Source: Liolophura sinensis
Taxonomy: Eukaryota > Mollusca > Polyplacophora > Chitonida > Chitonidae
Direction of reading: 5' to 3'
Length of the DNA stretch: 64,000 nt
Assembly: GCF_032854445.1 (NCBI RefSeq)
Contig: NC_088300.1
Span: 35,505,608 to 35,569,607 of the forward strand
The position numbers and the translations under genes are program-made. This document shows, piece after piece, positions 5,003 to 57,499 of the stretch; position 1 is the first letter of the stretch, and each line of letters opens with the position of its first letter. The notes under the pieces are model-generated. The model had not been told where the DNA came from. It searched no databases and worked only from the letters and a program-made list of their open reading frames with translations.

Positions 5003-5099
5003 AATTTTTTCTGCCCCCTTGAGATGTACTGTGTAGCACAGGAGGAGTGTAAGGTGGGAGAGGGCAATAAGACATGCAGAACAACTCCTGTATGTAAAG
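5003..5099 (+). CDS. u1 exon 2: C6 cysteine module
   Basis: 97-base exon starting in phase 0 and ending in phase 1, acceptor TTTCACCTACAG and donor GTATGG. Five cysteines are spaced C-x5-C-x5-C-x8-C-x5-C; with the cysteine two residues upstream of the splice the module has six. I do not recognise the family. By eye the exon is identical in all eight units. Confidence 0.75.
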
Positions 5100-5157
5100 G
5101 TATGGCATACATACAAGTACATATAATAGACAATTTTCAAATACAGCTCTTACTAAC

Positions 5158-6020
5158 CAGTTGCCAGTGAGATAAGCACAGCTTCTGCTGACAGTTTGCC
5201 AGCAAGACACGATGCCTTGCCAGTGAGACACAAATACAGCGTCTGTTGGCCTTTTCCAGTGACACATAAATATAGGATCTACTGACCCTTTGTCATTGAG
5301 ACAGAAAAATACAGCTTCTGCTGAGCCTTTGTGAATGAGACAACAATACAGATTGTATTTGCTCTTTGTGAATGAGACACCAATACAGATTGTGTATGCC
5401 CTTGGTCAATGAAACATCAATACAGATTGTGTTTGCCCTTTGTCAGTGAGACACCAATACAGATTGTGTTTGCCCTTTGTCAATGAGACACCAATACAGA
5501 TTGTGTAGGCCCTTGGTCAATGAGACACCAATACAGATTGTGTTTGCCCTTTGCCAATGATACACCAATACAGATTGTGTTTGCCCTTTGTCAGTGAGAC
5601 ACCAATAGAGATTGTGTTTGCCTTTTGTCAGTGAGACAGAAAAATACAGCTTGTGCTGGGCCTTTACCAATGAGACACCAATACAGATTGTGTAGGCCCT
5701 TGGTCAATGATACACCAATACAGATTGTGTAGGCCCTTGGTCAATGATACACCAATACAGATTGTGTTTGCCCTTTGTCAGTGAGACACCAATAGAGATT
5801 GTGTTTGCCTTTTGTCAGTGAGACAGAAAAATACAGCTTCTGCTGGGCCTTTACCAATGAGACACCAATACAGATTTCGTTTGCCTTTTGTCAATGAGAC
5901 ACCAATACAGATTGTGTTTGCCTTTTTGTCAATGATACACCAATACAGATTGTGTTTGCCTTTTGTCAAGGAAACAGCAATACTTATAGGAGAGGCACTT
6001 GGCCAGTGAGACACAAGTAC
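5158..6020 (+). repeat. 37-base minisatellite, long form (u1)
   Basis: About 23 diverged copies of a 37-base unit built on GACACCAATACAGATTGTG plus TTTGCCCTTTGTCAATGA. Long form seen in u1, u3 and u6. It lies wholly in the intron after the C6 exon. Confidence 0.9.
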
Positions 6021-6493
6021 AGCTTATAACGTGGTGTCATATTACATGAAGTGTGAACCGTGGATTGATGCTGCTATTTCAATTAAATCAATCTGAGAAA
6101 ATCAAACAAGTTAACCTATGTACTACATGTATATGTGTTTTTCAGAATTTGAAGTTGAATGGTGTTACATGTAACATATAGGGCACTACAGAAATTTGGC
6201 AGAGCAAATTATTGGACCTTAATATCTCCTTAAGCTGCTAAATACAACATCTTATGTTTGTTTTTCTATGGACTTTGTTGTCAGTAATAAAGGAGTTACT
6301 ATTACTGTTGCTTTAAAACACCTCTTTCTCATTTCCGCTTTCGTATATCTGTTCCCTAATAAAGGCCAATCCATTTAGTTTTTTTCCAGCAATGGATGCT
6401 CATGCCATTACAAAGACAGGATGTATAGAGTTTGTATGTTAGATGATAATTTGTTTTGCTTGTTCTGATGTACTGGACATTGCATACTTTCAG

Positions 6494-6613
6494 CCAGAGA
6501 CATGTGCAGCACTAACCCCTGTATGTTTGGTGGTTCCTGCACCCAGGACAGCGTGCAGGGCTACAGGTGTTGGTGTCAGCAGGGATTTACAGGGAGAAAT
6601 TGTGGCATCCCGG
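6494..6613 (+). CDS. u1 exon 3: EGF-like domain
   Basis: 120-base exon, phase 1-1, acceptor ATACTTTCAG and donor GTAAGA. Read in the phase set by its neighbours it gives MCSTNPCMFGGSC then CWCQQGFTGRNC, a full six-cysteine EGF. The longest open frame over these bases is a different one, so a simple ORF view would miss this exon. Two silent differences from the other units. Confidence 0.85.
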
Positions 6614-7442
6614 GTAAGATTGCCAGTTGTCATTTGCTGTAATTCACTTCTGTATATATCGAAAGAGCCAGAAAAAAGGAAAACTATAACATTTTTAATT
6701 ATGCAGTGACTAAAATGTTTTATAGGTACACATAAGGTTTGATATTTGTACACCATGGATAAGACACTTTTCGCTTGACACTCAGTACTGAGAGGTTTAT
6801 ATACAGTAGCTAAGATTCAGAACTGGTTGGCCCAGTGTCAGTATAATGTGACTGGGAGGGTTGGCATGTCGGGTGTTTTCTGGGCAGCACTGGCGACATT
6901 GAACATTTTTTAAGCACGACTTAAAACCCCAAGCATACACTGTATATACATACATTAGACACCTTTCATGGAAATTTCAGAATCATCGGTCAAGTAGTAG
7001 CAATTTTTGACATGCATGTGTGAAATAGGATGTTAGACTGAGCAGGCATCTAGCTTCTGGGATTTGATGTTCCTGCATATGGTTGCTGTTAATCAAGTGA
7101 AAAATACAGCTCTTTTAATAATACTTTTTCAGATATACTGGAATTCTCACAAAATTGTCTAATGTCCTTCAAGTGATAGGAAGTGTGACATAAAACCGTT
7201 GCGTTTAAAAATCTGGAATGATTTCAAATTTTTTCTGAACAGCTTGTTATAAGTGTGTGCCTTTGTTTTTGTTTGTTTTTTTTTTTCGTTTTTTCATTAA
7301 TTGGAAAGGAAGTCAATGTGGAATACAAAATGGCAACTAATCTACATACATGTACTACTGTTGATTTTAAGCTGTGGCTTTTGTTGCCTGGTAAGAATTT
7401 TGCTTAGATATGTTGGTTGGTAATACCTATAATTGTTTTCAG

Positions 7443-7613
7443 CCCCACACCGAGGAGTTTGTGGGAAAGTGGACATAGTGAAACTGCTTCACAAGTTAGT
7501 GGCATCTCCATCATCACTAGGAGCAGACTGTGTGGTGGACTCTGACTGTGGGAGTGACCAGAAATGTTGTCTCTCAGACTCGGGGGTCAGGTGTGTCTGG
7601 CCAGAAGCTACAG
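7443..7613 (+). CDS. u1 exon 4: WAP-like domain with six cysteines
   Basis: 171-base exon, phase 1-1. It keeps C1 (GVC), C3 and C4 (DCVVDSDC), KCC and C8 (RCVWP). C2 and C7 of the standard WAP are absent; these two pair with each other in WAP structures such as elafin. Variant residues: APHRG and GSDQ. Confidence 0.82.
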
Positions 7614-8179
7614 GTGAGGAAGACTTATTGTAATAAGAGTGTGAAAACCCATTGACTTATAATGAAGTAGTATACGTTTATTATACACGTATGTACACGT
7701 CTGTTTTTTGAGTGGATGTCTTCTGATTTCGTTTACCATCATTTTTTTCCTGTCAGCATGAAAATCCTGTGGGTAACGTTGTTTTCATTCGTAACAAATC
7801 AAGGATAAGTATAGTTTTGGAGACTTGGGTACTTGTTGAACCAGTTTGTTGGTTCAATCTTTAAAATTTTGAAAAATATTTTAAAGTAAGCCTTTTTGCT
7901 CAGTACCACTAAAGTTGACATTATGGTTCATTATATTTGAGATTTCTGCAAGCCTTTATTGGGTATAAAACATTTGCATATCAAAGGAAAATATTGTGAT
8001 TTTGGTATTAATTTGGTTATTGGTTAAATTTATTACAGATGCTGTCTAGTTCTTTACCCCAGAACGTGGATTTCTGTGTGCTAATTTGTAACTGCGAATA
8101 TTTTGATGCTCTTTGACATCTTTTACATATGTGATCATCAGCACTAACCAACTTAGGTCTGTTTTGTTGTTGTTGTTAG

Positions 8180-8587
8180 GTGCGAGCTTGTGTGAACAGC
8201 AGAACTACACTATGATGATGGTGAAGGAAAGCTTGCGAAACCTGAGCCGTGTAGACAACGTTACGCTGTCACAGCTGATGATTTTTGCTGAGGATAATCG
8301 AGTTCAACGTTACATCTACCAGATGTACAAGGTGAATGTGTCTCAGCTCCTGGGCAGTCTGGGTGAACTACAAAGCCTAAGTGTGGGTGCTTTACTGAAC
8401 ATGTCAAGCCAGTATCTAGCCTTGCCTTACCCCAACTGTACATATGACAGCCGGGAGTTTGAGCCCGTGCAGTGTTCTAGATTTATGAATGGAAGCATCC
8501 AGCTGTGTTACTGTGCCGATGTTGAGACTGGAGAGATGGTAGGCCAGGTGACCTATTATCCGTGGAAACCCGTCTGCCATCGTCAAG
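8180..8587 (+). CDS. u1 exon 5: thyroglobulin type-1 domain
   Basis: 408-base exon, phase 1-1, acceptor (TTG)n-TTAG and donor GTCAGT. Six Tg1 cysteines: SLCEQQ, YPNC, FEPVQC, LCYCAD and KPVC. An 81-residue stretch lies between C1 and C2 and carries several N-glycosylation sequons (NYT, NLS, NVT, NVS, NMS). Variants: SRVDN, KVNVS, YDSREF, CHRQG. Confidence 0.88.
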
Positions 8588-8945
8588 GTCAGTTGTGCCA
8601 GTTCATTTAGATTGAGACCAGTCTAAGATTTATGTACAAGATGTAAAAATGTTGATTAATTGTGTTATGAAGCTGATAATGTTTTAGAAAACCGTTAAAG
8701 CTAAACCATGGCAAATAAGCTAAAAAAATGACCTGACTAGCCAAAATTTACATTTTTAGAGGCAGGTAAATATAAGAAACTAAAAACTTAAATATTTTCA
8801 GTTTGATATTATTCTGCCGTCTAAGCAAACCGAATGGTAAATGCAACTATATCACACTGGGTTGAATGGCGTGACATAAATGAATGGCTGTCAGAGCAGG
8901 TTTGAAGCTGATTCACTGACTTTTCATTTCTTTTCTGTGGGGCAG

Positions 8946-9244
8946 ATGTCGGCACTGCTTGCTCCAGAACACTTAACCTTTGTGGGTCTGGTGGAACGTG
9001 CCAGCCTGTGGGCAATGAGAACTACAGGTGTATGTGTATGAGTGGCTACTATGGCGACCGTTGCCAATTCTACAACGGAACGGCGGGGACAGTCTGCACA
9101 AGGACGCCAACAATCTGTGAAAATGGCGGATCCTGTATGCCTGAAGGCACCAATGGCTACAGATGCATGTGTTTCTTTGGATTCTATGGTCGAAATTGCG
9201 AGTATCACAATGGAACTGTACCCCCTCCTACTGGAGTCTGTCAG
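8946..9244 (+). CDS. u2 exon 1: double EGF plus first C6 cysteine
   Basis: 299 bases. Variants LCGSGG, GDRC, GTAG, ENGG: the first-EGF loop and the linker between the EGFs differ from u1. Donor is GTAAAT instead of GTAATC. Confidence 0.88.
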
Positions 9245-9681
9245 GTAAATCCTGTTAAAGTAAAACAAACTTTAAATCTTTTCACTTTTTGAAATTCAGC
9301 TGTACAAAATAAGATGTGGCACAAGCAAGAATTAGGTATCATTCTAATAATGAAAACTATGGTGCATTGCGTTCACTAAATTGCTTTCTGTATTTGGCCT
9401 AAAATTTTGTCTGTGTATAAGTTACACATTTTGCATGTCTCTGACGGGTTTTTTTTGTTGTTTTTTTTTTGGAAGATAAAATGATCTACTGGTATGTTTA
9501 AATTCTAGAAGTAACTATTTATTGTTTTTTTTTTACCTCTAAAATTGCAATTTTTCTCAGGCAAATTTGTAGAGCACATATGCAGTAGGTTACATGTTTC
9601 CTAAAATACATGCAGTTAGCATGCATAGTTTATCTTGGTTTACAGGCTTATGTATGTTGGATGTTGTTGTTTCACCTACAG

Positions 9682-9778
9682 AATTTTTTCTGCCCCCTTG
9701 AGATGTACTGTGTAGCACAGGAGGAGTGTAAGGTGGGAGAGGGCAATAAGACATGCAGAACAACTCCTGTATGTAAAG
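9682..9778 (+). CDS. u2 exon 2: C6 cysteine module
   Basis: 97 bases, phase 0 to 1, sequence the same as in u1. The upstream intron has TTTACAGGCT where u1 has TTTATAGGCT. Confidence 0.75.
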
Positions 9779-9839
9779 GTATGGCATACATACAAGTACA
9801 TATAATAGACACTTTTCAAATACAGCTCTTACTAACCAG

Positions 9840-10133
9840 TTGCCAGTGAGATAAGCACAGCTTCTGCTGACAGTTTGCCAGCAAGACACGATGCCTTGCC
9901 AGTGAGACACAAATACAGCGTCTGTTGGCCTTTTCCAGTGAAACATAAATATAGGATCTACTGACTCTTTGTCATTGAGTCACAAAAATACAGCTTCTGC
10001 TGAGCCTTTGTGAATGAGACAACAATACAGATTGTGTTTGCTCTCTGTCAGTGATACACCAATACAGATTGTGTTTGCCCTTTGTCAGTGAGACACCAAT
10101 AGAAATTGTGTATGCCGTTGTCAGTAATAAAGG
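9840..10133 (+). repeat. 37-base minisatellite, short form (u2)
   Basis: Roughly eight copies of the same unit as in u1, ending in GCCGTTGTCAGTAATAAAGG. Confidence 0.85.
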
Positions 10134-10353
10134 ATTTTAGTCTAGTTATTACTCCCCTTGTTATAAATTTAATGAAGAGGTGCTGTTTTGAAAACACCTC
10201 TTTCTCCTTACCTCTTTCGTATATCTGTTTTCTAATAAAGGCCAATGTGTTGTAAAGCAATTAGTTTTTTCCCTACAAGGATGTATAGAGTTTGTATGTT
10301 AGATGATCATTTGTTTTGCTTGTTCTGATGTACTGGACATTGCATACTTTCAG

Positions 10354-10473
10354 CCAGAGACATGTGCAGCACTAACCCCTGTATGTTTGGTGGTTCCTGC
10401 ACCCAGGACAGTGTGCAGGGTTACAGGTGTTGGTGTCAGCAGGGATTTACAGGGAGAAATTGTGGCATCCCGG
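10354..10473 (+). CDS. u2 exon 3: EGF-like domain
   Basis: 120 bases, phase 1-1, same protein as u1 exon 3. The following intron lacks the stretch that contains GAAAAAAGGAAAAC in most other units. Confidence 0.85.
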
Positions 10474-11160
10474 GTAAGATTGCCAGTTGTCATTTGCTGT
10501 AATTCACTTTTGTATATATTGAGAGAGCCAGGACTGGTTGGCCCAGTGTCAGTATAATTTGACTGGGAGGGTTGGCATGTCGGGTGTTTTCTGGGCAGCA
10601 CTGGTGACATTGAACATTTTTTAAGCACGACTTTAAAACCCCAAGCATACACTGTATATACATACATTAGACACCTTTCATGGAAATTTCAGAATCATCG
10701 GTCAAGTAGTAGCAATTTTTGACATGCATGTGTGAAATAGGATGTTAGACTGAGCAGGCATCTAGCTTCTGGGATTTGATGTTCCTGCATATGGTTGCTG
10801 TTAATCAAGTGAAAAATACAGCTCTTTCAATAATACTTTTTCTGATATACTGGAATTTTCACAAAATTGTCTAATGTCCTTCAAGTGATAGGAAGTGTGA
10901 CATAAAACCGTTGCGTTTAAAAATCTGGAATGATTTCAAATTTAGGAGGTTTTTCTGAACAGCTTGTTATATGTGTGTGCCTTTGTTTTTTTGTTTTTTT
11001 TTTTCGTTTTTTCATTAATTGGAAAGGAAGTCAATGTGGAATACAAAATGGCAACTAATCTACAAACATGTACTGCTGTTGATTTTAAGCTGTGGCTTTT
11101 GTTGCCTGGTAAGAATTTTGCTTAGATATGTTTGTTGGTAATGCCTATAATTGTTTTCAG

Positions 11161-11331
11161 CCTCACACCGGGGAGTTTGTGGGAAAGTGGACATAGTGAA
11201 ACTGCTTCACAAGTTAGTGGCATCTCCATCATCACTAGGAGCAGACTGTGTTGTGGACTCTGACTGTGGGAATGACCAGAAATGTTGTCTCTCAGACTCG
11301 GGGGTCAGGTGTGTCTGGCCAGAAGCTACAG
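11161..11331 (+). CDS. u2 exon 4: six-cysteine WAP-like domain
   Basis: 171 bases, phase 1-1. Variants ASHRG and GNDQ. Same loss of C2 and C7 as in u1. Confidence 0.82.
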
Positions 11332-11898
11332 GTGAGGAAGACTTACTGTAATAAGAGTGTGAAAACCCATTGAGTTACAATGAAGTAGTATACGTTTATT
11401 ATACACGTATGTACACGTCTATTTTTTGAGTGGATGTCTTCTACTTTCGTTTACCATCATTTTTTTCCTGTCAGCATGAAAATCCTGTGGGTAACGTTGT
11501 TTTCATTCGTAACAAATCAAGGATAAGTATAGTTTTGGAGATTTGGGTACTTGTTGAACCAGTTTGTTGGTTCAATCTTTAAAATTTTGAAAAATATTTT
11601 AAAGTAAGCCTTTTTGCTCAGTACCACTAAAGTTGACATTATGGATCATTATATTTGAGATTTCTGCAAGCCTTTATTGGGTATAAAACATTTGCATATC
11701 AAAGGAAAATATTGTGATTTTGGTATTAATTTGGTTATTGGTTAAATTTATTACAAATGCCAATCTAGTTCTTTACCCCAGAACGTGGATTTCTGTGTGC
11801 TAATTTGTAACTGCAAATTTTTTGATGCTCTTTGACATCTTTTACATATGTGATCATCAGCACTAACCAACTTAGGTCTGTTTTGTTGTTGTTGTTAG

Positions 11899-12306: not shown

Positions 12307-12452
12307 GTCAGTTGTGCCAGTTCATTTAGATTGAGACCAGTCTAAGATTTATGTACAAGATGTAAAAATGTTGATTAATTATGTTATGAAGCTGATAATG
12401 TTTTAGAAGACCGTTAAAGCTAAACCATGTCAAATAGGCTAAAAAAAAAAAG

Positions 12453-12545
12453 GTGTGCCTGGTTTCCTCCCACCTTTAAGCTGGCTACCGTCATATCAGT
12501 GAAATATTCTTCAGCATGGCGTAAAGCACCAGGGAAATAAATAAA
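12453..12545 (+). mobile_element. SINE-2 tail fragment
   Basis: CTGGTTTCCTCCCACC, GTGAAATATTCTTCAG and GGCGTAAAGCACCAGG are the family's 3' blocks; tail ends in AAATAAATAAAT. No head. Confidence 0.65.
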
Positions 12546-12587
12546 TCTAAGCAAATGGCAGAACACCATTCTAACGTTAGTAGGTCT

Positions 12588-12875: not shown

Positions 12876-13021
12876 ATGATGGTGACATTTGCTCAAGCAA
12901 GCCATGTTGGAATGGAGGAACATGTGTGCCATTGGGAAGCGACTATTACTGTGATTGTGCATGTGGGTATGAAGGCAGACATTGTGAGATGCATCGCCAG
13001 ACTGCCCCATCACTTTGCCAG
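12876..13021 (+). CDS. EGF-like domain with seventh cysteine, plus first C6 cysteine
   Basis: 146-base exon entering in phase 1 and ending in phase 0. One EGF (ICSSKPCWNGGTC, then CDCACGYEGRHC). The CAC gives one more cysteine than the EGF pattern needs. A SLCQ ending supplies C1 of the following C6 module. It takes the place of the double-EGF exon of the units and is close to the exon at 49175-49332. Sister copy at 43953-44098. Confidence 0.86.
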
Positions 13022-13801: not shown

Positions 13802-13901
13802 ATGAAGTACTGTTCTCCTGGGACACACTGTGTTGTAGAGCAGCAGTGTAGATATGTGGGACCAGGGGCTGAGGAATGTCAAGCTACTACTGTATGTAGA
13901 G
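13802..13901 (+). CDS. C6 cysteine module exon, second type
   Basis: 100-base exon, phase 0 to 1, acceptor GGTTTTATCAG and donor GTAAGA. Cysteine spacing C-x5-C-x5-C-x9-C-x5-C, the same frame as the unit C6 exon but with unrelated residues between the cysteines. It supports the cysteine spacing as the conserved feature of the module. Confidence 0.75.
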
Positions 13902-15778: not shown

Positions 15779-15978
15779 NNNNNNNNNNNNNNNNNNNNNN
15801 NNNNNNNNNNNNNNNNNNNNNNNNNNNNNNNNNNNNNNNNNNNNNNNNNNNNNNNNNNNNNNNNNNNNNNNNNNNNNNNNNNNNNNNNNNNNNNNNNNNN
15901 NNNNNNNNNNNNNNNNNNNNNNNNNNNNNNNNNNNNNNNNNNNNNNNNNNNNNNNNNNNNNNNNNNNNNNNNNNNNNN
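15779..15978. other. Assembly gap (200 N)
   Basis: Exactly 200 N, a round number that suggests a placeholder length. The left flank matches the sequence leading into 46802, the right flank matches the intron from about 1267. The true distance and content are unknown. Confidence 0.98.
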
Positions 15979-18451: not shown

Positions 18452-18675
18452 AAATGCATACAAAGCATATATTTTCAGATGTTTTGGCAGAAACAAATGC
18501 TGTCAATTCCTTGATCTTTATTGACGCAGTATGTGTCATCAGTGTCTGCCCTTGACCTGGACAATCTGTTCTGCAAAACCTGCCAGTCAGTGTGCTACAG
18601 GTTTGAATGTTTTTCTTCCCTAAACCAGTAAATCTAATTATCTACTGTTGCCTCTTTATATGTTTATGTTATCAG

Positions 18676-18789
18676 AGTTGGCTTGCAGCAGTAGCCCTTG
18701 TCAAAACCAAGGTGTGTGTACGGCATTCGGAGTCGATCGCTATGCATGCGGGTGCCGTGCTGGTTTCTCTGGAGCCCACTGTGAATCAT
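18676..18789 (+). CDS. EGF-like domain exon
   Basis: 114 bases, phase 1-1, sister of 3691-3804 and the same protein. Confidence 0.87.
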
Positions 18790-19250
18790 GTGAGTGCCCA
18801 GTGGATAATGTAATTCTTCAACTTTTTCGAATGTTTGCAAGGTGTTTATTCAAGCATATTCAGAATAACTGTGTAGAATGGTTAAATTACACTTTTTGTG
18901 AAGTCCTGAAATTGACCAATCCAACCAATTTAGTTTTGTCTCCAAAATCAACTTAAAAAATGTGTATAAAGTGGACTTAAAGTCACTCTTTCATCTGCTA
19001 AAAGTTTGAGGAAATTAAGTGTGTCACAATGACTCTGGATTTCACAGTGAATAATGCAACTATGTGTACATGTATACCATGTTCCAGTTCATTGAATCAC
19101 GTAAATCCTTACATATCACACTAGGTTGTATCGCGTGACATAATTAAATAGATATATTAAAGTATATAAAGAAATAAATGAATGGCTATCTACAGACCAG
19201 CAGGCCGTCCCTTTTTTTCATTGACGTCTCATTTCTTTTCTGTGGGGCAG
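18790..19250. other. Intron with no recognised content
   Basis: Copy of 3805-4265. Confidence 0.55.
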
Positions 19251-19549
19251 ATGTCGGCACTGCTTGCTCCAGAACGCTTAACCTTTGTGGGGCTGGTGGA
19301 ACGTGCCAGCCTGTGGGCAATGAGAACTACAGGTGTATGTGTATGAGTGGCTACTATGGCGACCATTGCCAATTCTACAACGGGACTGTGGGGACGGTCT
19401 GCACAAGGACGCCAACAATCTGTGAAAATGGCGGATCCTGTATGCCTGAAGGCACCAATGGCTACAGATGCATGTGTTTCTTTGGATTCTATGGTCGAAA
19501 TTGCGAGTATCACAATGGAACTGTACCCCCTCCTACTGGAGTCTGTCAG
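19251..19549 (+). CDS. u3 exon 1: double EGF plus first C6 cysteine
   Basis: 299 bases; LCGAGG, GDHC, GTVG, ENGG as in u1. No difference from u1 noticed. Confidence 0.88.
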
Positions 19550-19986: not shown

Positions 19987-20083
19987 AATTTTTTCTGCCC
20001 CCTTGAGATGTACTGTGTAGCACAGGAGGAGTGTAAGGTGGGAGAGGGCAATAAGACATGCAGAACAACTCCTGTATGTAAAG
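19987..20083 (+). CDS. u3 exon 2: C6 cysteine module
   Basis: 97 bases, phase 0 to 1, unchanged from u1. Confidence 0.75.
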
Positions 20084-23928: not shown

Positions 23929-24227
23929 ATGTCGGCACTGCTTGCTCCAGAACACTTAACCTTTGTGGGTCTGGTGGAACGTGCCAGCCTGTGGGCAATG
24001 AGAACTACAGGTGTATGTGTATGAGTGGCTACTATGGCGACCGTTGCCAATTCTACAACGGGACGGCGGGGACAGTCTGCACAAGGACGCCAACAATCTG
24101 TGAAAATGGCGGATCCTGTATGCCTGAAGGCACCAATGGCTACAGATGCATGTGTTTCTTTGGATTCTATGGTCGAAATTGCGAGTATCACAATGGAACT
24201 GTACCCCCTCCTACTGGAGTCTGTCAG
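23929..24227 (+). CDS. u4 exon 1: double EGF plus first C6 cysteine
   Basis: 299 bases; LCGSGG, GDRC, GTAG, ENGG, donor GTAAAT. u2-like, unlike the u5 version. Confidence 0.88.
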
Positions 24228-24664: not shown

Positions 24665-24761
24665 AATTTTTTCTGCCCCCTTGAGATGTACTGTGTAGCA
24701 CAGGAGGAGTGTAAGGTGGGAGAGGGCAATAAGACATGCAGAACAACTCCTGTATGTAAAG
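24665..24761 (+). CDS. u4 exon 2: C6 cysteine module
   Basis: 97 bases, phase 0 to 1, unchanged. Confidence 0.75.
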
Positions 24762-27715: not shown

Positions 27716-28014
27716 ATGTCGGCACGGCTTGCTCCAGAACACTTAACCTTTGTGGGTCTGGTGGAACGTGCCAGCCTGTGGGCAATGAGAACTACAGGTG
27801 TATGTGTATGAGTGGCTACTATGGCGACCATTGCCAATTCTACAACGGGACGGCGGGGACGGTCTGCACAAGGACGCCAACAATCTGTGAAAATAGCGGA
27901 TCCTGTATGCCTGAAGGCACCAATGGCTACAGATGCATGTGTTTCTTTGGATTCTATGGTCGAAATTGCGAGTATCACAATGGAACTGTACCCCCTCCTA
28001 CTGGAGTCTGTCAG
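27716..28014 (+). CDS. u5 exon 1: double EGF plus first C6 cysteine
   Basis: 299 bases; LCGSGG, GDHC, GTAG and ENSGSC, where the others have ENGGSC. The Gly-to-Ser change sits next to C3 of the second EGF, in a position usually Gly. Confidence 0.88.
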
Positions 28015-28452: not shown

Positions 28453-28549
28453 AATTTTTTCTGCCCCCTTGAGATGTACTGTGTAGCACAGGAGGAGTGT
28501 AAGGTGGGAGAGGGCAATAAGACATGCAGAACAACTCCTGTATGTAAAG
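28453..28549 (+). CDS. u5 exon 2: C6 cysteine module
   Basis: 97 bases, phase 0 to 1, unchanged. Confidence 0.75.
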
Positions 28550-31503: not shown

Positions 31504-31802
31504 ATGTCGGCACGGCTTGCTCCAGAACACTTAACCTTTGTGGGTCTGGTGGAACGTGCCAGCCTGTGGGCAATGAGAACTACAGGTGTATGTGTATGAG
31601 TGGCTACTATGGCGACCATTGCCAATTCTACAACGGGACGGCGGGGACGGTCTGCACAAGGACGCCAACAATCTGTGAAAATAGCGGATCCTGTATGCCT
31701 GAAGGCACCAATGGCTACAGATGCATGTGTTTCTTTGGATTCTATGGTCGAAATTGCGAGTATCACAATGGAACTGTACCCCCTCCTACTGGAGTCTGTC
31801 AG
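31504..31802 (+). CDS. u6 exon 1: double EGF plus first C6 cysteine
   Basis: 299 bases; ENSGSC variant shared only with u5. Confidence 0.88.
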
Positions 31803-32240: not shown

Positions 32241-32337
32241 AATTTTTTCTGCCCCCTTGAGATGTACTGTGTAGCACAGGAGGAGTGTAAGGTGGGAGAG
32301 GGCAATAAGACATGCAGAACAACTCCTGTATGTAAAG
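32241..32337 (+). CDS. u6 exon 2: C6 cysteine module
   Basis: 97 bases, unchanged; it lies within the interval where the unit switches from u5-like to u3-like. Confidence 0.75.
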
Positions 32338-36162: not shown

Positions 36163-36461
36163 ATGTCGGCACTGCTTGCTCCAGAACACTTAACCTTTGT
36201 GGGTCTGGTGGAACGTGCCAGCCTGTGGGCAATGAGAACTACAGGTGTATGTGTATGAGTGGCTACTATGGCGACCGTTGCCAATTCTACAACGGGACGG
36301 CGGGGACAGTCTGCACAAGGACGCCAACAATCTGTGAAAATGGCGGATCCTGTATGCCTGAAGGCACCAATGGCTACAGATGCATGTGTTTCTTTGGATT
36401 CTATGGTCGAAATTGCGAGTATCACAATGGAACTGTACCCCCTCCTACTGGAGTCTGTCAG
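36163..36461 (+). CDS. u7 exon 1: double EGF plus first C6 cysteine
   Basis: 299 bases; LCGSGG, GDRC, GTAG, ENGG. Confidence 0.88.
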
Positions 36462-36899: not shown

Positions 36900-36996
36900 A
36901 ATTTTTTCTGCCCCCTTGAGATGTACTGTGTAGCACAGGAGGAGTGTAAGGTGGGAGAGGGCAATAAGACATGCAGAACAACTCCTGTATGTAAAG
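36900..36996 (+). CDS. u7 exon 2: C6 cysteine module
   Basis: 97 bases, unchanged. Confidence 0.75.
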
Positions 36997-40024: not shown

Positions 40025-40323
40025 ATGTCGGCACTGCTTGCTCCAGAACACTTAACCTTTGTGGGTCTGGTGGAACGTGCCAGCCTGTGGGCAATGAGAA
40101 CTACAGGTGTATGTGTATGAGTGGCTACTATGGCGACCATTGCCAATTCTACAACGGGACTGTGGGGACGGTCTGCACAAGGACGCCAACAATCTGTGAA
40201 AATGGCGGATCCTGTATGCCTGAAGGCACCAATGGCTACAGATGCATGTGTTTCTTTGGATTCTATGGTCGAAATTGCGAGTATCACAATGGAACTGTAC
40301 CCCCTCCTACTGGAGTCTGTCAG
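40025..40323 (+). CDS. u8 exon 1: double EGF plus first C6 cysteine
   Basis: 299 bases; LCGSGG (u2-type) with GDHC and GTVG (u1-type). Confidence 0.88.
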
Positions 40324-40760: not shown

Positions 40761-40857
40761 AATTTTTTCTGCCCCCTTGAGATGTACTGTGTAGCACAGG
40801 AGGAGTGTAAGGTGGGAGAGGGCAATAAGACATGCAGAACAACTCCTGTATGTAAAG
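40761..40857 (+). CDS. u8 exon 2: C6 cysteine module
   Basis: 97 bases, unchanged. Confidence 0.75.
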
Positions 40858-43952: not shown

Positions 43953-44098
43953 ATGATGGTGACATTTGCTCAAGCAAGCCATGTTGGAATGGAGGAACAT
44001 GTGTGCCATTGGGAAGTGACTATTACTGTGATTGTGCATGTGGGTATGAAGGCAGACATTGTGAGATGCATCGCCAGACTGCCCCATCACTTTGCCAG
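43953..44098 (+). CDS. EGF-like domain with seventh cysteine, plus first C6 cysteine
   Basis: 146 bases, phase 1 to 0; same protein as 12876-13021, including CDCACGYEGRHC. Confidence 0.86.
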
Positions 44099-44878: not shown

Positions 44879-44978
44879 ATGAAGTACTGTTCTCCTGGGA
44901 CACACTGTGTTGTAGAGCAGCAGTGTAGATATGTGGGACCAGGGGCTGAGGAATGTCAAGCTACTACTGTATGTAGAG
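44879..44978 (+). CDS. C6 cysteine module exon, second type
   Basis: 100 bases, phase 0 to 1, same as 13802-13901. Confidence 0.75.
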
Positions 44979-49174: not shown

Positions 49175-49332
49175 GCTCGTGTGGGCCGAACATGGGCACA
49201 TGTTGGAATGGAGGCTCTTGTATGATGTCAGGGGCTGGGTACCGCTGTATGTGTGCCTGTGGGTACACAGGTCAACACTGTGAGTCCCCAGCCTGGGTGT
49301 CTACAACCCCACCTCCCACACACCCTTGTCAG
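49175..49332 (+). CDS. EGF-like domain with seventh cysteine, plus first C6 cysteine
   Basis: 158-base exon, phase 1 to 0, acceptor GTTGCAG and donor GTAAGG. EGF (CGPNMGTCWNGGSC, then CMCACGYTGQHC) again with the extra cysteine after C5, then a Pro/Thr-rich linker ending HPCQ, which gives C1 of the C6 module. Confidence 0.86.
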
Positions 49333-51279: not shown

Positions 51280-51361
51280 CATCACTACTGTGGGCAAGGC
51301 GAAAGATGTCAAACCAAATGGCATTGTAGCACTCCTGAGAACTGTTACGAGATGCCTTACT
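51280..51361 (+). CDS. C6 cysteine module exon, third type
   Basis: 82-base exon, phase 0 to 1, acceptor GTTTGCTAG. Cysteine spacing C-x5-C-x5-C-x5-C-x5-C (HHYCGQGERC, CSTPENCYEMPYC). Two donors six bases apart are both in phase: GTGAGC ending the exon at 51361, or GTGAAG ending it at 51367. With the first, the last Cys codon is split and is restored by the next exon's GT. Confidence 0.7.
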
Positions 51362-51367
51362 GTGAGC

Positions 51368-52024
51368 GTGAAGATTTCGGGTGTGTTTAGGACCGTTCTG
51401 TAAGTAACTTCATTGACTCTAATAGTTATTTCACTGCTGTGTATAAAATCCATTTGATCGTCATCAAACATGTGACCGGTTTCCTACCACCATGATGCTG
51501 GTCGCCGATAAAGTGAAATAGTCTTGATTACGGCGGATAATAAAAACACCAATCAAATAAATAAATAAATGAATCAATCAATGAGTTCAAATGAATCAAA
51601 TCATTAAACCATATGCATCAGTTTTATACTCTGACGAAGGATCTGTTTTAGATATTTCTCAAGTGTTTATCTCGAGTGGCGATTCAAGTTAGACATTAAT
51701 TGTTGGAGGACTTTATTGTGTGTATGGATATGTTGAAAAAATTTTGTGTATGTTTACTATAGTGAAATAGCTGTCAATAGTTGTACAACGTCTCAGTTCC
51801 ATGTATTACTGGATGAATCCTTAATATAGTAGCCTTATTAAACAACTGTAACTGTAATTTAAAGGTTCACTACTATTAGGTGTATACACAGTATATGCCG
51901 TCTATGATTGGTTTTTAGTGTATATTCATTTTAAGAACTGTTTGCAGTTTCCAATTTCTGTTCACCTGATGACTTTTTAGAGTTCAGTAGTGAAATGTTA
52001 TTTTTTTCCTTGATTGTTTGACAG
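51368..52024. other. Intron with SINE-2 tail
   Basis: Holds the fragment at 51470-51582. The EGF exon that normally follows a C6 exon is not found here. Confidence 0.6.
51470..51582 (+). mobile_element. SINE-2 tail fragment
   Basis: CCGGTTTCCTACCACCATGA, AGTGAAATAGTCTTGA, and AACACCAATCAAATAAATAA tail followed by AATCAATCAATG. Confidence 0.65.
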
Positions 52025-52201
52025 GTCAAAACCAAAGTTGCCCTCTAATACCTCTGTCCAGCGTTCCTGGTATAGTTGACTTGGCCTTCAGCTTCAACGG
52101 TAGCTGTCCTTCTGATTGTGTGCGAGACAGCCAGTGTGGAGACTCCATGAGGTGCTGTACTGTGGGGTGTCACTCACAGTGTACACCAACTGTGGCTCTA
52201 G
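52025..52201 (+). CDS. WAP domain exon, eight cysteines
   Basis: 177 bases, phase 1-1, acceptor TTTGACAG and donor GTAAGA. Full set: SCPLI, SCPSDC, DSQC, RCC, GCHSQC. The canonical eight-cysteine form here contrasts with the six-cysteine WAP 4.7 kb upstream. Confidence 0.87.
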
Positions 52202-52473
52202 GTAAGACGTTATTCAATGTTCATTGCATTTTTCTCATCGTTGTTAAATAATTGCAGCATGGAGAGATGTTCATGCTGTAATTATTCTTTGTGATCATTT
52301 TTTTTTGTGGCTTAACAGGAGGTTCATGTATATGAAGTATAGTTTTGTGGTCCCTGGATTTTCGCTTGTTGCCCCAACAGGATAAATTTGTATACATTTT
52401 TAGGTATTGTGAAGGGGGGGGGGGTCCGTGCTGGTGTCTGGTTAAGCTTTTTTTTTCAGCTCCTGTAAAATGT

Positions 52474-52657
52474 GCTCTCATATATGAAAGGTCAAGCTTT
52501 TTCTTTCACGTCCCTAATCTAAGGTATGGTGTGTAAATGTACATACTCAGATGGAAGGTTAAGTTGCTCTCATATATGAAAGGTCAAGCTTTTTCTTTCA
52601 AGTGCCTGATCTAAGGTATGGTGTGTAAATGTACATACTCAGATGGAAGGTTAAGCT
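52474..52657 (+). repeat. 92-base direct repeat, two copies
   Basis: GCTCTCATATATGAAAGGTC recurs at 52474 and 52566 with the following bases up to ATGGAAGGTTAAG nearly identical. Confidence 0.85.
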
Positions 52658-53644
52658 TTTTTAGCTCCTGTATATTGGGCACTTATACTTGGATTGAAGA
52701 TTACTTGAAGATTGAGGAACTTTTTTTTTATAGCTCCAACAAGCTTTTTTAATATTTTTTTCGCTGTTTAAGGGCTCAAAGATGGTGTGTGCATCTACAT
52801 AGGGCTTACTTTTGGAAGGTTGAACTTTTTTGTTGGTTTTTGTTTTATTGGCTTTGTGAATGTTCTTGTACATGATGTTTCTTTGACTTTTTTTTTTTTT
52901 TTTTGAGGTTTGTAACCTTCATCTATTTCTTGTAATCAAGAAAACCTTCATGTAGGGCTACAATGTTTGTACACAAGACCATCTACATGTACGATAACCA
53001 GGTCCCCTGGTGATTTTGCCAGATTTGTCATTTTTCTTTTTTGCTCACTTTGACTGTTCTCCTTTAAAAACAGATTTCTTTAGGCATTTCATATAGGAAT
53101 ACAGTTTCTTTTGCAAACACCTATCTAGAGAAGATTATTGTCCTTCTAGCTATTTTACTACATATGTGAAGTGTCAGACTTTACCAACTTTTTGGACTTT
53201 ATTTTCTCTGGTATGCACTTTATCTGTAGAAAACTTTTCCGCATCTGTATTAGTACTTGGAGCCTATGGTACTGATCGATGCATGTGCCTTCCTAGACTG
53301 CAAGGGAATGGTTAAACCACTCACACTGGCAGTGAGCATTTGCTCAGCCAATCACAGGATTGCATTAGCCATACATAATACACTGATAGCCAATTGTGGG
53401 TAGCGAGTACACGGATTGGCAAATGCAGATCATGATTTGCATATCAAAGAACATTGCCCACAAAAACACATTTTACCACTCCTTCGATTGACAACTTTAT
53501 AACATATGAAGTCACTACTCTGCAATCTTCATGCATACTGTATGATAAACATTCATATTCTGACAGTATAATAATTTTGGTCTTGATTTTCGATTTAATT
53601 GCAAGGTCTTAGCAGTGTCTTATTAGAGAATAATACCTGTGTAT

Positions 53645-53882
53645 GGGGGGCCACCGTGGCTCAGTTGGTTAGCACGCTAGCGCAGAGTAATGACCCAGAC
53701 CATGGCAGTCGCTGTGAGTTCAAATCTAGTTACGCTGGCTTACTCTCCAGCCATACGTGGGAAGGTAGCGGGTCTCCACCAGACTCTGCTCAGTTTGCTC
53801 CCACCATAATGCTGGTTGCCGTCGTATAAGCGAAATATTCTTGAGTATGGCATAAAACTCCAATCAAATAAATAAATAAATA
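53645..53882 (+). mobile_element. SINE-2 copy, nearly full length
   Basis: Head GGGGGGCCACCGTGGCTCAG and GGTTAGCACGCTAGCGCAG, body TCCACCAGACTCTGC and CCCACCATAATGCTGG, tail AAAACTCCAATCAAATAAAT. Confidence 0.85.
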
Positions 53883-54068
53883 TCTGTGTATGACAGTGTC
53901 ATTCTACTTTATTTTGGTTTAGAGGTGAATATTTGAATGTATCGCCTCCCTTGAACAGTATGCAGTTTTACAAACTCAGCTCAATCAGGCGAGCCCCGGT
54001 GAGCGCTCTGAATGCCTTGTTATATGCTTGTCATTAATGATGAGACGTACATCTATTATGGTATGGGG

Positions 54069-54478
54069 TTTTCTATCCCTAAACATTTGCTGTTAACACC
54101 GTGTCTACAAAACTGCTTCACATAGAACCTTTAAGCCAGAGGTGCGCTAGTTTTCCATCCCAAAACATTTGGCGTTAACACCATTTCCACAGAGCTGCTT
54201 GACATAGAACCTTTAAACCGGAGATGCGCTAGTTTTCCATCCCTAAACATTTCCTGTTAACACCATGTCTACAAAACTGTTGCACATAGAACCTTTAAGC
54301 TGGAGATGCTCTGGTTTTCCATCCCTAAACATTTGGTGTTAACATCGTGTCTACAAAACTGCTTCACATGGAACCTTTAAGCCGGAGATGCGCTAGTTTT
54401 CCATGCCTAAACATTTGGCATTAACACCATGTCTACAAAACATGCTTCACATAGAACCTTGAAACCGAATATGTGCTA
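54069..54478 (+). repeat. 82-base minisatellite, five copies
   Basis: TTTTCCATCCCTAAACATTT starts recur at 54069, 54151, 54233, 54315 and 54397, exactly 82 bases apart. The unit includes GTCTACAAAACTGCTTCACA and AGAACCTTTAAGCCGGAGAT. Confidence 0.9.
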
Positions 54479-54696
54479 ATTATTATTTACCACGCAGTTG
54501 ACCCAGTAGCCCATTGAAATTAATGGTTGCCGACAGCAGACTTTATATAGCTATGCCACTTTTTTGTAACTTTTTAGTTTTCCATATTGTTAGTACTGTA
54601 TCCACAGAACTGCTTAGCTTGAGCTTTTTTGACTTATGTCATTGACCCAGAAGCCTGCTGAAAGGTTCTGAAAGCTTGTTGTCCTTTAGTGACTTT

Positions 54697-54928
54697 TCGG
54701 GAGCAGTAGATCCAGGATCAATCCTGGGTTGAGTCACACCTAAGACTTTAAAAGAGGAAATTGTAACTTCCTCGCTTGGTGTTCAGCATGAAGGGGATAG
54801 TGCAACGACTTGTTGACCCGCATCAGTATAATGGATTGGGCGAGGCGGCTTACTTGGTGACTGTGACAGTTTCTAAAATACTCGTAATATTCTTCAGTAA
54901 AACAATAATCAAATAAATAAATAAAATA
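54697..54928 (+). mobile_element. Hybrid SINE: SINE-1 front, SINE-2-like tail
   Basis: Front is SINE-1 from the B box (GATCCAGGATCAATCC) through CATCAGTATAATGG and GGCGGCTTACTTGG. It then switches to AATATTCTTCAGTAAAACAA and ATCAAATAAATAAATAAA, which resembles the SINE-2 tail. Confidence 0.55.
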
Positions 54929-55571
54929 TATTCTTATCTTATTCATTTCAAATAGATCTCGTAGCCCATTGAATTTCTTCAGTATTGGACATGTTTTGCC
55001 AATATAGTTAATAACCCTTAAAGATTGGCCATTTCCTATTCAGCTAAAATACATCTAAATAGCTATAACATACAGGGTGTCAAAATGCATGTTGTTAATT
55101 GTGTTTCTTTAGGGACTTGGTCAAAGTAGATTGGAGTTATACCACTTCCAGCAACGTGGTGTACCTGTTTGTTGTCCACATGCCAGAGGGGTATTTTGGA
55201 GGCTTCCACTTTTGGAAGGCAGTGTTTATATCATTGATGCCTTTCAGAACATTGCATTTTATTTGTGTTGTTTTCTCCTGCCAGTTCATAACTACAGTGT
55301 ATATGAAATGTTCTGATCAGTACATAAGGCAAAGCAAATTGAAGTGTATGTGTACATTCTGGACAAAATGAATTAAAATTTATTTGCATGTTGTGGAAGA
55401 TAATTGTAGTGTTCATAATGAAATTTAGAAAATGATGTCATCCGTAATGACAAATAACTTTTTAGACACCTTTGTAATTTTTTTCTAGATAATTATTATG
55501 TTTACCTTGAGACTTCAGTTAGTGTGACCAGTAAGAGATGAGATTTGTAATCGACTGGTGTTTGTTTTCAG

Positions 55572-55958
55572 GCCAGACGGAGTGTCAGCGTAAAAACTAC
55601 ACAATGCTGCTGTTAAGTGAGGCTATAAAAGCAGTAGAGAAGTACAGCTCACTTACCATTTCTCAGCTGCTGATGGCTGGCCACAACATGACTATTGTGG
55701 AGGAGCTAGGTCGTGAATTCTGGTCAGAGTGGGATCTGGAGAGAGTTCAGCGGGACTATGGCGGGGTCTCAATTTCCGTCGCTCTTCAATTATTGAAGGC
55801 GGACTACTCATTCCCAACCGCACACTGTCTGCCAAACGGAGACTTTGTCACCAGACAGTGTGCTGTGCGTGTTGACGGAACTGTCGTGGGCTGTTTCTGT
55901 GTGGATCGTAGAGGGATTGAGAGACCAAGAACTCGCAACACAGTAGGCAACTGTAGAG
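55572..55958 (+). CDS. Thyroglobulin type-1 domain exon
   Basis: 387 bases, phase 1-1, acceptor TTTGTTTTCAG and donor GTAGGG. Six cysteines: TECQRK, AHCLPNGDFVTRQC, GCFCVDRRG and NC. The N-terminal KNYTMLLLSEAI resembles QNYTMMMVKESL of the unit Tg1, so the long C1-C2 insertion is a family feature. Confidence 0.87.
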
Positions 55959-56353
55959 GTAGGGTCATACTATGACAATTTGTCGCAACGAATGTTTGTC
56001 TTTATTATAATCAAAGTCAATTGTAACTTTTGTTTTGACCACAATTGCCAGAACTGATGTTTTCTTTGATGGATACATTTACCATTGTTGTCCTGTTATT
56101 TGTTTGTGTGTGTGTGTGATCAGGTATTATTCTGTTGTTTTTTGTTTTTTTTCTTTTTTAATTTGTTATTCTCTTATTTATTTTTTTGCTATATTTTTGG
56201 TGTTAAAAATCTGTTTGATACATGTTTAGGGTTTCTTTTTTTTTAAGGTGAGAGATAAAGGATTCCATAACTCTATATTATGTTACATGTGATAGGCACA
56301 TTCATACTAAGCGACCCTAATCTATAGTGTAAAACTTTCGTTGTTCTTGTCAG
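55959..56353. other. Intron with no recognised content
   Basis: 395 bases, T-rich with a (TG)n run near 56105-56118. Confidence 0.55.
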
Positions 56354-56475
56354 ATTTAACCTGTCAGCTGGGGTGGTGTCCTCAAGGCCAGACCTGCCAA
56401 ACCCTGGATGAGTATGGACGTTACACCTGTGTGTCTAACACCACCACAGTGGCTCCTTCTACAGATCCCTGTGCG
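56354..56475 (+). CDS. Reduced EGF-like domain with four cysteines, plus first C6 cysteine
   Basis: 122-base exon, phase 1 to 0, acceptor CTTGTCAG and donor GTGAGA. It keeps C1 to C4 of an EGF (TCQLGWCPQGQTC, YTCV) but has Ser where C5 should be and no C6. A Thr/Ser-rich linker (NTTTVAPSTDPCA) follows and gives C1 of the next C6 module. N-x-T sequon at the linker start. Confidence 0.78.
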
Positions 56476-56639
56476 GTGAGACTATTCACAATTACAAACT
56501 TAATCAGATCTGTGCAGAGTTGTAATTTTTGGGTATTCAGTGTGTAGTAGTGTCTTATTAAACTGAAATCATCGATCCTTTCACTCTGTGACATTTCCAT
56601 GGGGGGTTTTTAAGAAATTTTCATGCTTTTTTTTTGCTT

Positions 56640-56780
56640 CTTTGGCTGTGCCTTTAAGACAGGCCTCTGGCACTTCAGATTTCGCCTTTTATAAACCTAA
56701 CTGACAGCATATAAGGGATGCATTCTTGAGTACGGCTGCACCGTATAAACGTCAATCAATTAAATAATAAATGAAATGCA
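56640..56780 (+). mobile_element. Decayed SINE-2 tail
   Basis: GCATTCTTGAGTACGGCTGC and CGTCAATCAATTAAATAATA are the recognisable 3' blocks. Confidence 0.45.
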
Positions 56781-56930
56781 GAGTGGCCAAGGGACATAAT
56801 CCTGAGAGAAGCTGTAGCCAAGCATTGAGAATGTGTATATAGCTGAGTGGTAGACTTACATGCATATGTAGACCTGTGTTACATACTTAAGTATATTAAA
56901 TGTTTCAAACAAAATTTTATCTGTGAAATA

Positions 56931-57382
56931 AGTCCAGCATAAGTGTATCATAAAAGTGCACCTGCTTGTAATACATTTAAATATGTGATTCAGCATAAGT
57001 GTGTCATGAAGGTGCAGCTGCTTGTAATACATATGTATATGTGATCCAGCATAAGTGTGTCATGAAGGTGCAGCTGTTTGTAATACATATGTATATGTGA
57101 TTCAGCATAAGTGTGTCATGAAGGTGCAGCTGCTTGTAATACATGTGAATATGTGATCCAGCATAAGTGTGTCATGAAGGTGCAGCTGCTTGTAATACAT
57201 ATGTATATGTGATCCAGCATAAGTGTGTCATGAAGGTGCAGCTGCTTGTAATACATATGTATATGTGATCCAGCATAAGTGTGTCATGAAGGTGCAGCTG
57301 CTTGTAATACATATGTATATGTGATCCAGCATAAGTGTGTCATGAAGGTGCAGCTGCTTGTAATACATATGAATATGTGATA
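56931..57382 (+). repeat. 56-base minisatellite, eight copies
   Basis: Unit begins CCAGCATAAGTGTGTCATGA and contains AGGTGCAGCTGCTTGTAATA plus a short (AT)-rich CATATGTATATGTGAT. First copies diverged, later copies nearly identical. Confidence 0.92.
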
Positions 57383-57414
57383 ATTTCAGTTGATGAAGAA
57401 ATCACTGTTTTTAG

Positions 57415-57499
57415 GGTTACTTCTGTGGTGAGAGGCAAAAATGTGTTTCACAACGGAGCTGTGTGGGTACCAGCTGCAGACTTGTCCCCATGTGTTATG
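57415..57499 (+). CDS. C6 cysteine module exon, fourth type
   Basis: 85-base exon, phase 0 to 1, acceptor ACTGTTTTTAG and donor GTAAGG. Spacing C-x5-C-x5-C-x4-C-x5-C (GYFCGERQKC, CVGTSCRLVPMC). It was found by phase and cysteine spacing; the longest open frame over these bases is another one. Confidence 0.7.

What the first reader, a model, noticed from the sequence alone, without database searches (positions are those of the whole stretch)
5003..57499. Unrecognised six-cysteine module with fixed spacing, split by the only phase-0 intron
Four unrelated-looking exon types (5003, 13802, 51280, 57415 and their copies) share C-x4-C-x5-C-x5-C-x(4-9)-C-x5-C. The first cysteine always comes from the end of the preceding EGF exon (VCQ, LCQ, PCQ or PCA) and the splice is always in phase 0. 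Residues between cysteines are hardly conserved, so the spacing is the signature. I cannot assign it to a named family.
Basis: partly seen in the sequence, partly recalled or inferred. Interest (0 to 1): 0.8.

Follow-up and report, generated by a model that had tools for sequence, protein, structure and literature searches.

The report
Six-cysteine variant of a four-cysteine module
A stretch of animal DNA that seems to encode one giant protein of EGF and protease-inhibitor-type pieces carries a small six-cysteine unit that looks like a lengthened form of a known four-cysteine unit, and bacteria have a unit of the same cysteine layout.

Summary
Twelve exons of four types encode C2-C6 of C-x4-C-x5-C-x5-C-x(4-9)-C-x5-C. 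All 12 start in phase 0 and end in phase 1, and C1 closes the preceding exon. Flanks add four exons. Corrections: D follows a four-cysteine exon, not EGF; C3-C4 varies (4-6); Gly at C2+3, Val at C3+1 and Pro at C6-2 are each in 6 of 8 types. Pfam and NCBIfam give no usable match.

Best reading: a lengthened form of the known four-cysteine C4C/CREMP/follistatin-like hairpin. Four-cysteine exons nearby have the same phases, two of four the same borders, so two extra cysteines probably staple a longer hairpin. An unnamed bacterial unit (8 of 195 and 5 of 377 genomes) has all six cysteines, sits beside four-cysteine forms and often Kazal or Kunitz domains, and matches the animal profile. But beyond cysteine positions only the first half, C1-C3, matches (0 of 100 permutations as good); the second half does not (31 of 100). 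So the core is probably shared; whether the extra pair is shared or was gained twice is open. Disulfides, splicing and function are inferred.

The parts
5003..5099 (+). module exon type A copy 1 (C2-C6), phase 0 in, phase 1 out
9682..9778 (+). module exon type A copy 2
13802..13901 (+). module exon type B copy 1
19987..20083 (+). module exon type A copy 3
24665..24761 (+). module exon type A copy 4
28453..28549 (+). module exon type A copy 5
32241..32337 (+). module exon type A copy 6
36900..36996 (+). module exon type A copy 7
40761..40857 (+). module exon type A copy 8
44879..44978 (+). module exon type B copy 2
51280..51367 (+). module exon type C; weakest predicted splice sites (missed by the scans)
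57415..57499 (+). module exon type D
4266..4564 (+). double-EGF exon (phase 1 to 0) ending in C1 of type A; equivalent exons 8946-9244, 19251-19549, 23929-24227, 27716-28014, 31504-31802, 36163-36461, 40025-40323
12876..13021 (+). EGF-type exon (phase 1 to 0) ending in C1 of type B; second copy 43953-44098
49175..49332 (+). EGF-type exon (phase 1 to 0) ending in C1 of type C (preferred another acceptor, 49153)
56354..56475 (+). unsplit four-cysteine (C4C-like) exon plus Thr/Pro linker ending in C1 of type D; not EGF

Best explanation
The module is a lengthened form of the four-cysteine C4C module (the follistatin/EGF-N-half-like hairpin known from avian CREMP and slime-mould SP75). In the four-cysteine form the chain runs C1-x4-C2-x5-C3-(short hairpin)-C4. 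In the six-cysteine form the hairpin between C3 and the last cysteine is longer and carries one extra cysteine on each strand, C4 and C5, about five residues from C3 and C6. The likely bonds are C1-C3, C2-C6 and a cross-strand C4-C5 staple, with the variable 4-9-residue stretch as the hairpin tip. In this stretch of DNA, taken here as one gene, the module sits, one phase-0 intron after C1, among EGF, WAP, antistasin-like, thyroglobulin-1 and LDLa exons of a giant, presumably secreted or cell-surface mosaic. I think its main job is that of a rigid, disulfide-locked spacer that sets inhibitor-type and EGF domains apart, with the tip loop free to vary. Shown: exon anatomy, phases, conserved positions, the four-cysteine sister exons, a bacterial unit of the same layout. 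Inferred: that the exons form one gene, splicing, disulfides, fold, secretion and function.
For: Shared gene anatomy: 16 of 16 six-cysteine exons start in phase 0 three codons before C2, and 15 of 16 end one codon plus one base after the last cysteine (E: two codons). The four split four-cysteine exons are also phase 0 in and phase 1 out; S2 and S3 have exactly the same borders and S1 the same 3' border. This makes C6 of the long form equivalent to C4 of the short form and C4-C5 an added pair. Spacing is symmetric in 6 of 8 types (C3-x5-C4 and C5-x5-C6), and the largest length variation lies between C4 and C5. AlphaFold2 gives a two-stranded hairpin: type B exon without C1, strands 10-20 and 23-32, mean pLDDT 91; bacterial unit, strands 11-16 and 28-33, pLDDT 82. 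The bacterial profile hits four-module CREMP 9pgb (E 6.8e-7 for the whole chain, first 15 positions). RhTx 2mva is hit over the first four cysteines by the type E sequence, the animal profile and the bacterial profile (E 0.26, 0.076, 0.025). Animal versus bacterial unit: hhalign 88.8%, E 2.5e-6 for a single comparison, end to end; EGF or WAP of this locus versus the bacterial unit scores 9.3, against 24.5. The animal short form scores 25.5 against the bacterial six-cysteine profile and 20.5 against the animal one, over the first 15-17 columns, as expected if all share the C4C core. Bacterial proteins place four- and six-cysteine forms side by side (L140, L164, L167, by eye).
Against: S1 has its intron three codons after C1, and S4 has C1-x1-C2 and a different 3' border, so only two of four short exons match fully. 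pTM is low (0.42, 0.39), two of five type B models were poor (pLDDT 51 and 47), the modelled exon lacks C1, and no coordinates were available to check sulfur distances. Foldseek found no solved-structure match for the bacterial model and only E >= 3.9 for the type B exon. The CREMP hit is significant only summed over modules; single modules have E 1.1 to 11. The animal profiles did not hit CREMP. No transcript evidence. For the bacterial link: with cysteines and Gly held, 1 of 150 permuted animal profiles scored as high as the real one against the 10-row set (0 of 150 against 20 rows); the six-type alignment A3 matched less well (51%, E 1.5e-4); the half that makes the module special, C3 to C6, shows no match beyond cysteine positions (31 of 100 permutations as good); and the seed was found with a pattern that imposed type F's spacing and the Gly.
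Confidence: 0.6

Rival explanations
1. The module is a complete C4C or antistasin-N-subdomain unit (C1-C3, C2-C4) followed by a separate small disulfide loop C5-x5-C6, so the extra pair sits after, not inside, the hairpin.
For: The first four cysteines C-x4-C-x5-C-x(4-6)-C fit RhTx (two disulfides) and the start of the antistasin domain pattern C-X4-C-X5-C-X4,6-C-X-C-X4,5-C quoted in PMC12838937 (passage). Antistasin-like exons occur in the same locus.
Against: Shared exon borders put the last cysteine of the short form at C6, not C4. Predicted strands span C3 to C6. C4-C5 is 4-9 residues here against 1 in antistasin. No antistasin-type chain was listed at E<=10 by the animal or bacterial profile.
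Confidence: 0.22
2. The module is itself a protease-inhibitor domain, whose tip loop between C4 and C5 (or the C-x3-P-x-C end) is presented to proteases, like the inhibitor-type domains beside it.
For: Company kept: WAP, antistasin and thyroglobulin-1 in the animal locus; Kazal or Kunitz above the Pfam cut-off in 5 of 10 bacterial carriers scanned (13 located) and Kazal below the cut-off in one more, none in four. Loop residues differ between animal types, as inhibitory loops often do.
Against: The tip varies in length and sequence with no shared reactive-site pattern; EGF and four-cysteine units are equally close neighbours. No direct evidence.
Confidence: 0.2
3. Animals and bacteria share only the C4C core (C1-C3 half); the extra cysteine pair was gained separately in each, so the six-cysteine forms are convergent.
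For: C3-C6 half: no similarity beyond cysteine positions, 31 of 100 permutations as good. Bacteria share an APCPP core that the animal types lack and mostly C3-x6-C4. Presence in bacteria is sparse (8 of 195, 5 of 377, 0 of 4 genomes).
Against: Same six cysteines, with Pro two before C6 in many rows of both; C1-C3 half similar beyond cysteines (0 of 100); similar company of four-cysteine forms and inhibitor-type domains.
Confidence: 0.5
4. Artefact: some of these exons are not used (decoy or degenerate exons in a tandemly duplicated locus).
For: No transcripts; exon C has weak splice sites; the EGF exon before type E is broken by frame changes in the assembly; six of nine changed codons between D and D' alter the residue.
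Against: All six cysteine positions and both phases are kept in four types in the window. D versus D': all five exon cysteines kept, dN 0.118 and dS 0.321, exon identity 73/85 against 71/114 upstream and 82/106 downstream. Skipping only the module exon would shift the frame.
Confidence: 0.07

Closest known systems
C4C / CREMP module (avian eggshell membrane protein; slime-mould SP75), PMC3068167 (abstract, sections 22-23 and passages read)
   Same: C-x4-C-x5-C start; modular use; the four-cysteine exons of this locus have C-x4-C-x5-C-x8-10-C, as quoted for CREMP (x8) and SP75 (x6-10)
   Different: Six cysteines instead of four, a longer predicted hairpin with an extra C-x(4-9)-C, phase-0 split after C1; CREMP repeats have strong residue conservation
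Follistatin N-terminal / EGF-like hairpin (Pfam FOLN PF09289, EGF PF00008)
   Same: C-x4-C-x2-G-x2-C start; follistatin 1lr7 is listed by the bacterial profile at E 5.4
   Different: No FOLN or EGF hit on the module in the animal queries; no C-x-C, no C5-x8-C6
TILa (Pfam PF12714), C-terminal part
   Same: Weak matches: type A E 0.31; the bacterial four-cysteine forms of L140 E 0.002, 18.6 bits
   Different: All below the 27-bit cut-off; type A match covers only the first half of the module
Antistasin domain, N-terminal part (pattern in PMC12838937, passages read)
   Same: C-X4-C-X5-C-X4,6-C then two more cysteines; antistasin-like exons in the same locus
   Different: C4-C5 spacing 1 versus 4-9; no profile hit to antistasin-type chains at E<=10
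RhTx, PDB 2mva (PMC4589873, passages read)
   Same: Spacing of the first four cysteines; two disulfides; weak hits
   Different: Stand-alone 27-residue venom peptide, four cysteines only
Unnamed bacterial C-x4-C-x2-G-x2-C-x6-C-x4-C-x5-C repeat (L073, L138, L139, L162-L167)
   Same: All six cysteines, Gly in most rows, Pro near C6, tandem use, mixed with four-cysteine forms and inhibitor domains
   Different: APCPP core in most rows, C3-C4 mostly 6, some rows with a shorter C1-C2, no residue similarity in the second half beyond cysteine positions

Membership tests
C4C/CREMP/FOLN-like four-cysteine module | C-x4-C-x5-C-x(6-10)-C | tested here: not met
   Six-cysteine exons: first three cysteines fit, then C-x(4-6)-C-x(4-9)-C-x5-C. 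The four-cysteine units S1-S3, 56354 and 73231 do fit.
C4C/CREMP/FOLN-like four-cysteine module | Profile hit to FOLN or a CREMP chain | tested here: inconclusive
   FOLN not reported for the animal queries, only E 4.7 for a bacterial repeat. CREMP 9pgb hit by the bacterial profile over 15 positions, significant only as a sum of modules; not hit by the animal profiles.
C4C/CREMP/FOLN-like four-cysteine module | Disulfides C1-C3 and C2-last | not testable with these tools
   No coordinates or mass data; connectivity inferred.
EGF | C-x-C between C4 and C5, Pfam EGF hit | tested here: not met
   C4-C5 is 4-9; no EGF hit above cut-off on the modules.
TIL / TILa | Pfam TIL or TILa hit above cut-off | tested here: not met
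   Only TILa E 0.31, 11.6 bits against 27, type A.
EB module | Pfam EB hit | tested here: not met
   None listed up to E=10; HMMER filters drop most weak matches.
Antistasin | Pfam antistasin hit on the module; C4-x-C5 | tested here: not met
   Antistasin hit only on the upstream exon of S4 (protein 7); C4-C5 spacing differs.
Bacterial six-cysteine repeat (unnamed) | Profile match beyond cysteine spacing over the whole unit | tested here: inconclusive
   Whole unit yes (1 of 150 permutations as good); split in halves, C1-C3 yes (0 of 100), C3-C6 no (31 of 100).
Bacterial six-cysteine repeat (unnamed) | APCPP core between C4 and C6 | tested here: not met
   Absent from 8 of 8 animal types.

The most novel reading that the evidence does not exclude
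An uncatalogued six-cysteine domain family is shared by bacteria and animals. It arose from the four-cysteine C4C module by gaining a C-x(n)-C staple in the hairpin, is used in both inside multi-inhibitor proteins, and is itself a protease-binding element.
Probability: 0.1. Interest if true: 0.75.

Novelty: new variant of a known kind. Interest (0 to 1): 0.45.

Why it matters
It would put a name to a small module that the libraries searched here miss, and it links eggshell and spore-coat four-cysteine repeats, a bacterial repeat often found beside Kazal or Kunitz domains, and a giant animal mosaic. The exon borders offer a direct view of how a disulfide may be added to an existing mini-fold: both forms sit in one locus with the same intron phases. 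Whether bacteria gained the same extra pair separately becomes a testable case of parallel stapling.

Tried and rejected
Other homes in the same genome: single-sequence searches with types A, B, D, E and F (C and G not tried) found confident matches only at this locus. Three weak hits elsewhere (E 1.2-2.5) were fetched and showed no module exon. Single 30-residue queries are insensitive, so this does not show that the module is confined to this locus.

Known families: Pfam, NCBIfam, solved-structure sequences, fold search: no assignment. Scytovirin (E 2.2), icos-1 (E 0.084), Kartesh 2 (E 0.04) and, for bacterial repeats, zf-CCCH_tandem (E 0.091) and DUF5637 (E 0.16) rejected as weak and partial.

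Judged by eye, nearly all were low-complexity or other Cys-rich repeats, and only L073 was taken further. Four other genomes from that list had no match to the bacterial profile (0 of 4). Rows left out of the 10-row set A4: two of five L139 copies and the hits of L142, L143 and L144. The 20-row set still lacks the two L139 copies, L142 and L144, and one doubtful match each in L141 and L164.

Literature searches (open-licence library only; only 79 and 94 asked for the spacing) showed no description of the six-cysteine spacing in what I saw. PMC4500399 (passages) only compares its proteins with CREMP. The Markov control models dinucleotides, not Cys-rich coding DNA. In one search my attempt to compute the borders of the EGF exon at 3644 failed; only the printed sequence was used.

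Full report
What is there. The window lies on contig 6 of an unnamed 609 Mb genome. Module, WAP, EGF, antistasin-like and LDLa exons were predicted on the + strand from about 13.2 kb upstream of the window to about position 103,000 in window coordinates, about 39 kb past its end. That they form one gene is assumed. In the window, 12 exons of four types (A x8, B x2, C, D) give five cysteines each. Each is preceded by a phase-1-to-0 exon whose last cysteine completes C-x4-C-x5-C-x5-C-x(4-9)-C-x5-C. Flanks give four more exons: D' at 73928-74012, E at -5967, F at -10639 and G at -13235. C1 was found for D' and read for E; it was not found for F and G.

More than chance. A scan for phase-0-to-1 exons with five suitably spaced cysteines returned 14 of the 16 known exons from 124 kb, two readings of one EGF exon and four low-complexity readings. 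It returned nothing on the minus strand and nothing in 6 of 6 Markov sequences. C and D were missed for weak splice scores. D and D' are diverged copies: the exon is 73/85 identical, the 120 bases upstream 71/114 and downstream 82/106; dN 0.118 and dS 0.321, six of nine changed codons altering the residue, all five exon cysteines kept. This is mild evidence for selection on the protein.

The upstream partner of D is a four-cysteine exon with a Thr/Pro linker, not EGF. Outside the window the same kind of phase-0 junction follows antistasin-like exons (80069, 86359, 98092), of which 98092 hits Pfam antistasin, 80069 does not and 86359 was not scanned. C3-C4 varies from 4 to 6 once F and G are included. 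Gly at C2+3, Val at C3+1 and Pro at C6-2 are each present in 6 of 8 types.

The four-cysteine sister form. Exons -254, 81406, 89889 and 98877, with the cysteine of the exon before, give C-x4-C-x5-C-x(8-10)-C (98877: C1-x1-C2). They too start in phase 0 and end in phase 1. At 56354 and 73231 the same unit is unsplit. The pattern is that of CREMP module a (C-X4-C-X5-C-X8-C-X6) and of the slime-mould SP75 repeat (C-X4-C-X5-C-X6-10-C), as stated in PMC3068167 (abstract, sections 22 and 23, and passages read). Two of the four short exons share both borders with the long ones and a third the 3' border, so the last cysteines of the two forms probably correspond. The long form is then the short form with an extra cysteine on each side of a longer hairpin. 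The equal C3-x5-C4 and C5-x5-C6 spacing (6 of 8 types) and the variable middle fit a cross-strand staple.

Models. AlphaFold2 on the type B exon (without C1, five-row alignment) gave strands 10-20 and 23-32, mean pLDDT 91, pTM 0.39, with two of five models poor. On the bacterial L073 unit it gave strands 11-16 and 28-33, pLDDT 82, pTM 0.42. Both are read as hairpins spanning C3 to C6. Foldseek gave no match and nothing better than E 3.9. Bond partners were not measured.

Relatives elsewhere. A spacing pattern based on type F, and on my memory of bacterial repeats, led to one clear bacterial protein, L073. The unit was found in 9 of 195 genomes of that phylum at E<=0.01 with the single sequence, 8 of 195 at E<=0.001 with the profile, 5 of 377 of the phylum of a Myxococcales record at E<=1e-4 and 0 of 4 others. 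L138 has three and L139 five tandem copies; L140, L164 and L167 carry four-cysteine forms beside the six-cysteine one, judged by eye. Three bacterial stretches scanned had no Pfam or NCBIfam match above cut-off; the four-cysteine part of L140 touches TILa at E 0.002, below cut-off. Ten of the 13 located carriers were scanned whole: five have Kazal or Kunitz domains above the Pfam cut-off, one a Kazal hit below it, four nothing.

How far the match goes. hhalign of the eight animal types against ten bacterial units: 88.8%, E 2.5e-6 for one comparison, score 24.5, end to end. With six of the animal types (A3) it was weaker: 51%, E 1.5e-4. Controls on the animal side: non-cysteine residues permuted, 0 of 60 reached 24.5 (max 20.3); columns permuted, 0 of 60 (max 19.0); EGF and WAP profiles of this locus, 9.3 each; but the animal four-cysteine form scored 25.5 over the first 15 columns alone. 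With cysteines and the Gly column fixed, 1 of 150 reached the observed score. Against a 20-row bacterial set: score 23.5, 0 of 150 with cysteines fixed (max 23.3) and 0 of 150 with cysteines and Gly fixed (max 22.8). Split in halves, C1-C3 scores 17.6 with 0 of 100 permutations as good, while C3 to the end scores 9.5 with 31 of 100 as good. So the shared residues lie in the C4C core. For the C3-C6 half only the cysteine layout and the Pro near C6 agree, and the bacterial seed was selected for that layout. The bacterial APCPP core is absent from the animal types. I therefore hold a shared core as likely, and give about even odds to the extra pair having been gained twice.

Function. The locus mixes WAP, thyroglobulin-1 and antistasin (each at least once above the Pfam cut-off), EGF and LDLa domains; the first three families include many protease inhibitors (established knowledge). 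Half of the bacterial carriers scanned share that company. I commit to a structural role, a disulfide-locked spacer with a free tip, and give direct protease inhibition 0.2. A point from gene anatomy: dropping only the module exon shifts the frame, while dropping it with its partner exon does not, so splicing could remove EGF plus module as one unit.

Verdict. A real feature, not named in the Pfam-A, NCBIfam and solved-structure searches made here. Best called a new six-cysteine variant of the C4C/CREMP/follistatin-like hairpin module. Nothing I saw (open-licence papers, mostly listings) describes the six-cysteine spacing.

Noticed in passing
4847-43142: Eight copies of a repeated block, mostly 3.7-4.7 kb apart; the 300-base stretches shown are 97-100% identical: recent duplication, gene conversion or an assembly effect.
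   Followed up: partly
about window -6780 to -6600 (L002): The EGF exon before module E reads in three different frames, as if two single-base changes broke it: assembly error or decay.
   Followed up: partly
102969-103130, 105668-105811, 107714-107969 (L006, L011): A further cysteine-rich unit near the end of the locus; the two copies tested had no Pfam match.
   Followed up: no
57100-57400: A short tandem repeat lies directly upstream of module exon D (by eye); the acceptor score of D is low.
   Followed up: no
15779-15978: A 200-base run of N inside the repeat array.
   Followed up: no
L162:988-2187, L163:988-2514: Bacterial proteins with Kunitz/BPTI domains (three stretches in L162) beside the six-cysteine unit.
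   Followed up: partly
L140:676-1788: C-terminal region resembles the NCBIfam eight-cysteine-cluster domain TIGR04289 (E 2.8e-6, below cut-off).
   Followed up: no
about 55535-55970: Thyroglobulin type-1 domain (Pfam E 4.9e-7) just upstream of the four-cysteine exon that precedes module D.
   Followed up: partly
window 3644-3824 and copy 18629-18809: An EGF exon called with phases 2-0 although 1-1 borders look possible; left unresolved.
   Followed up: partly
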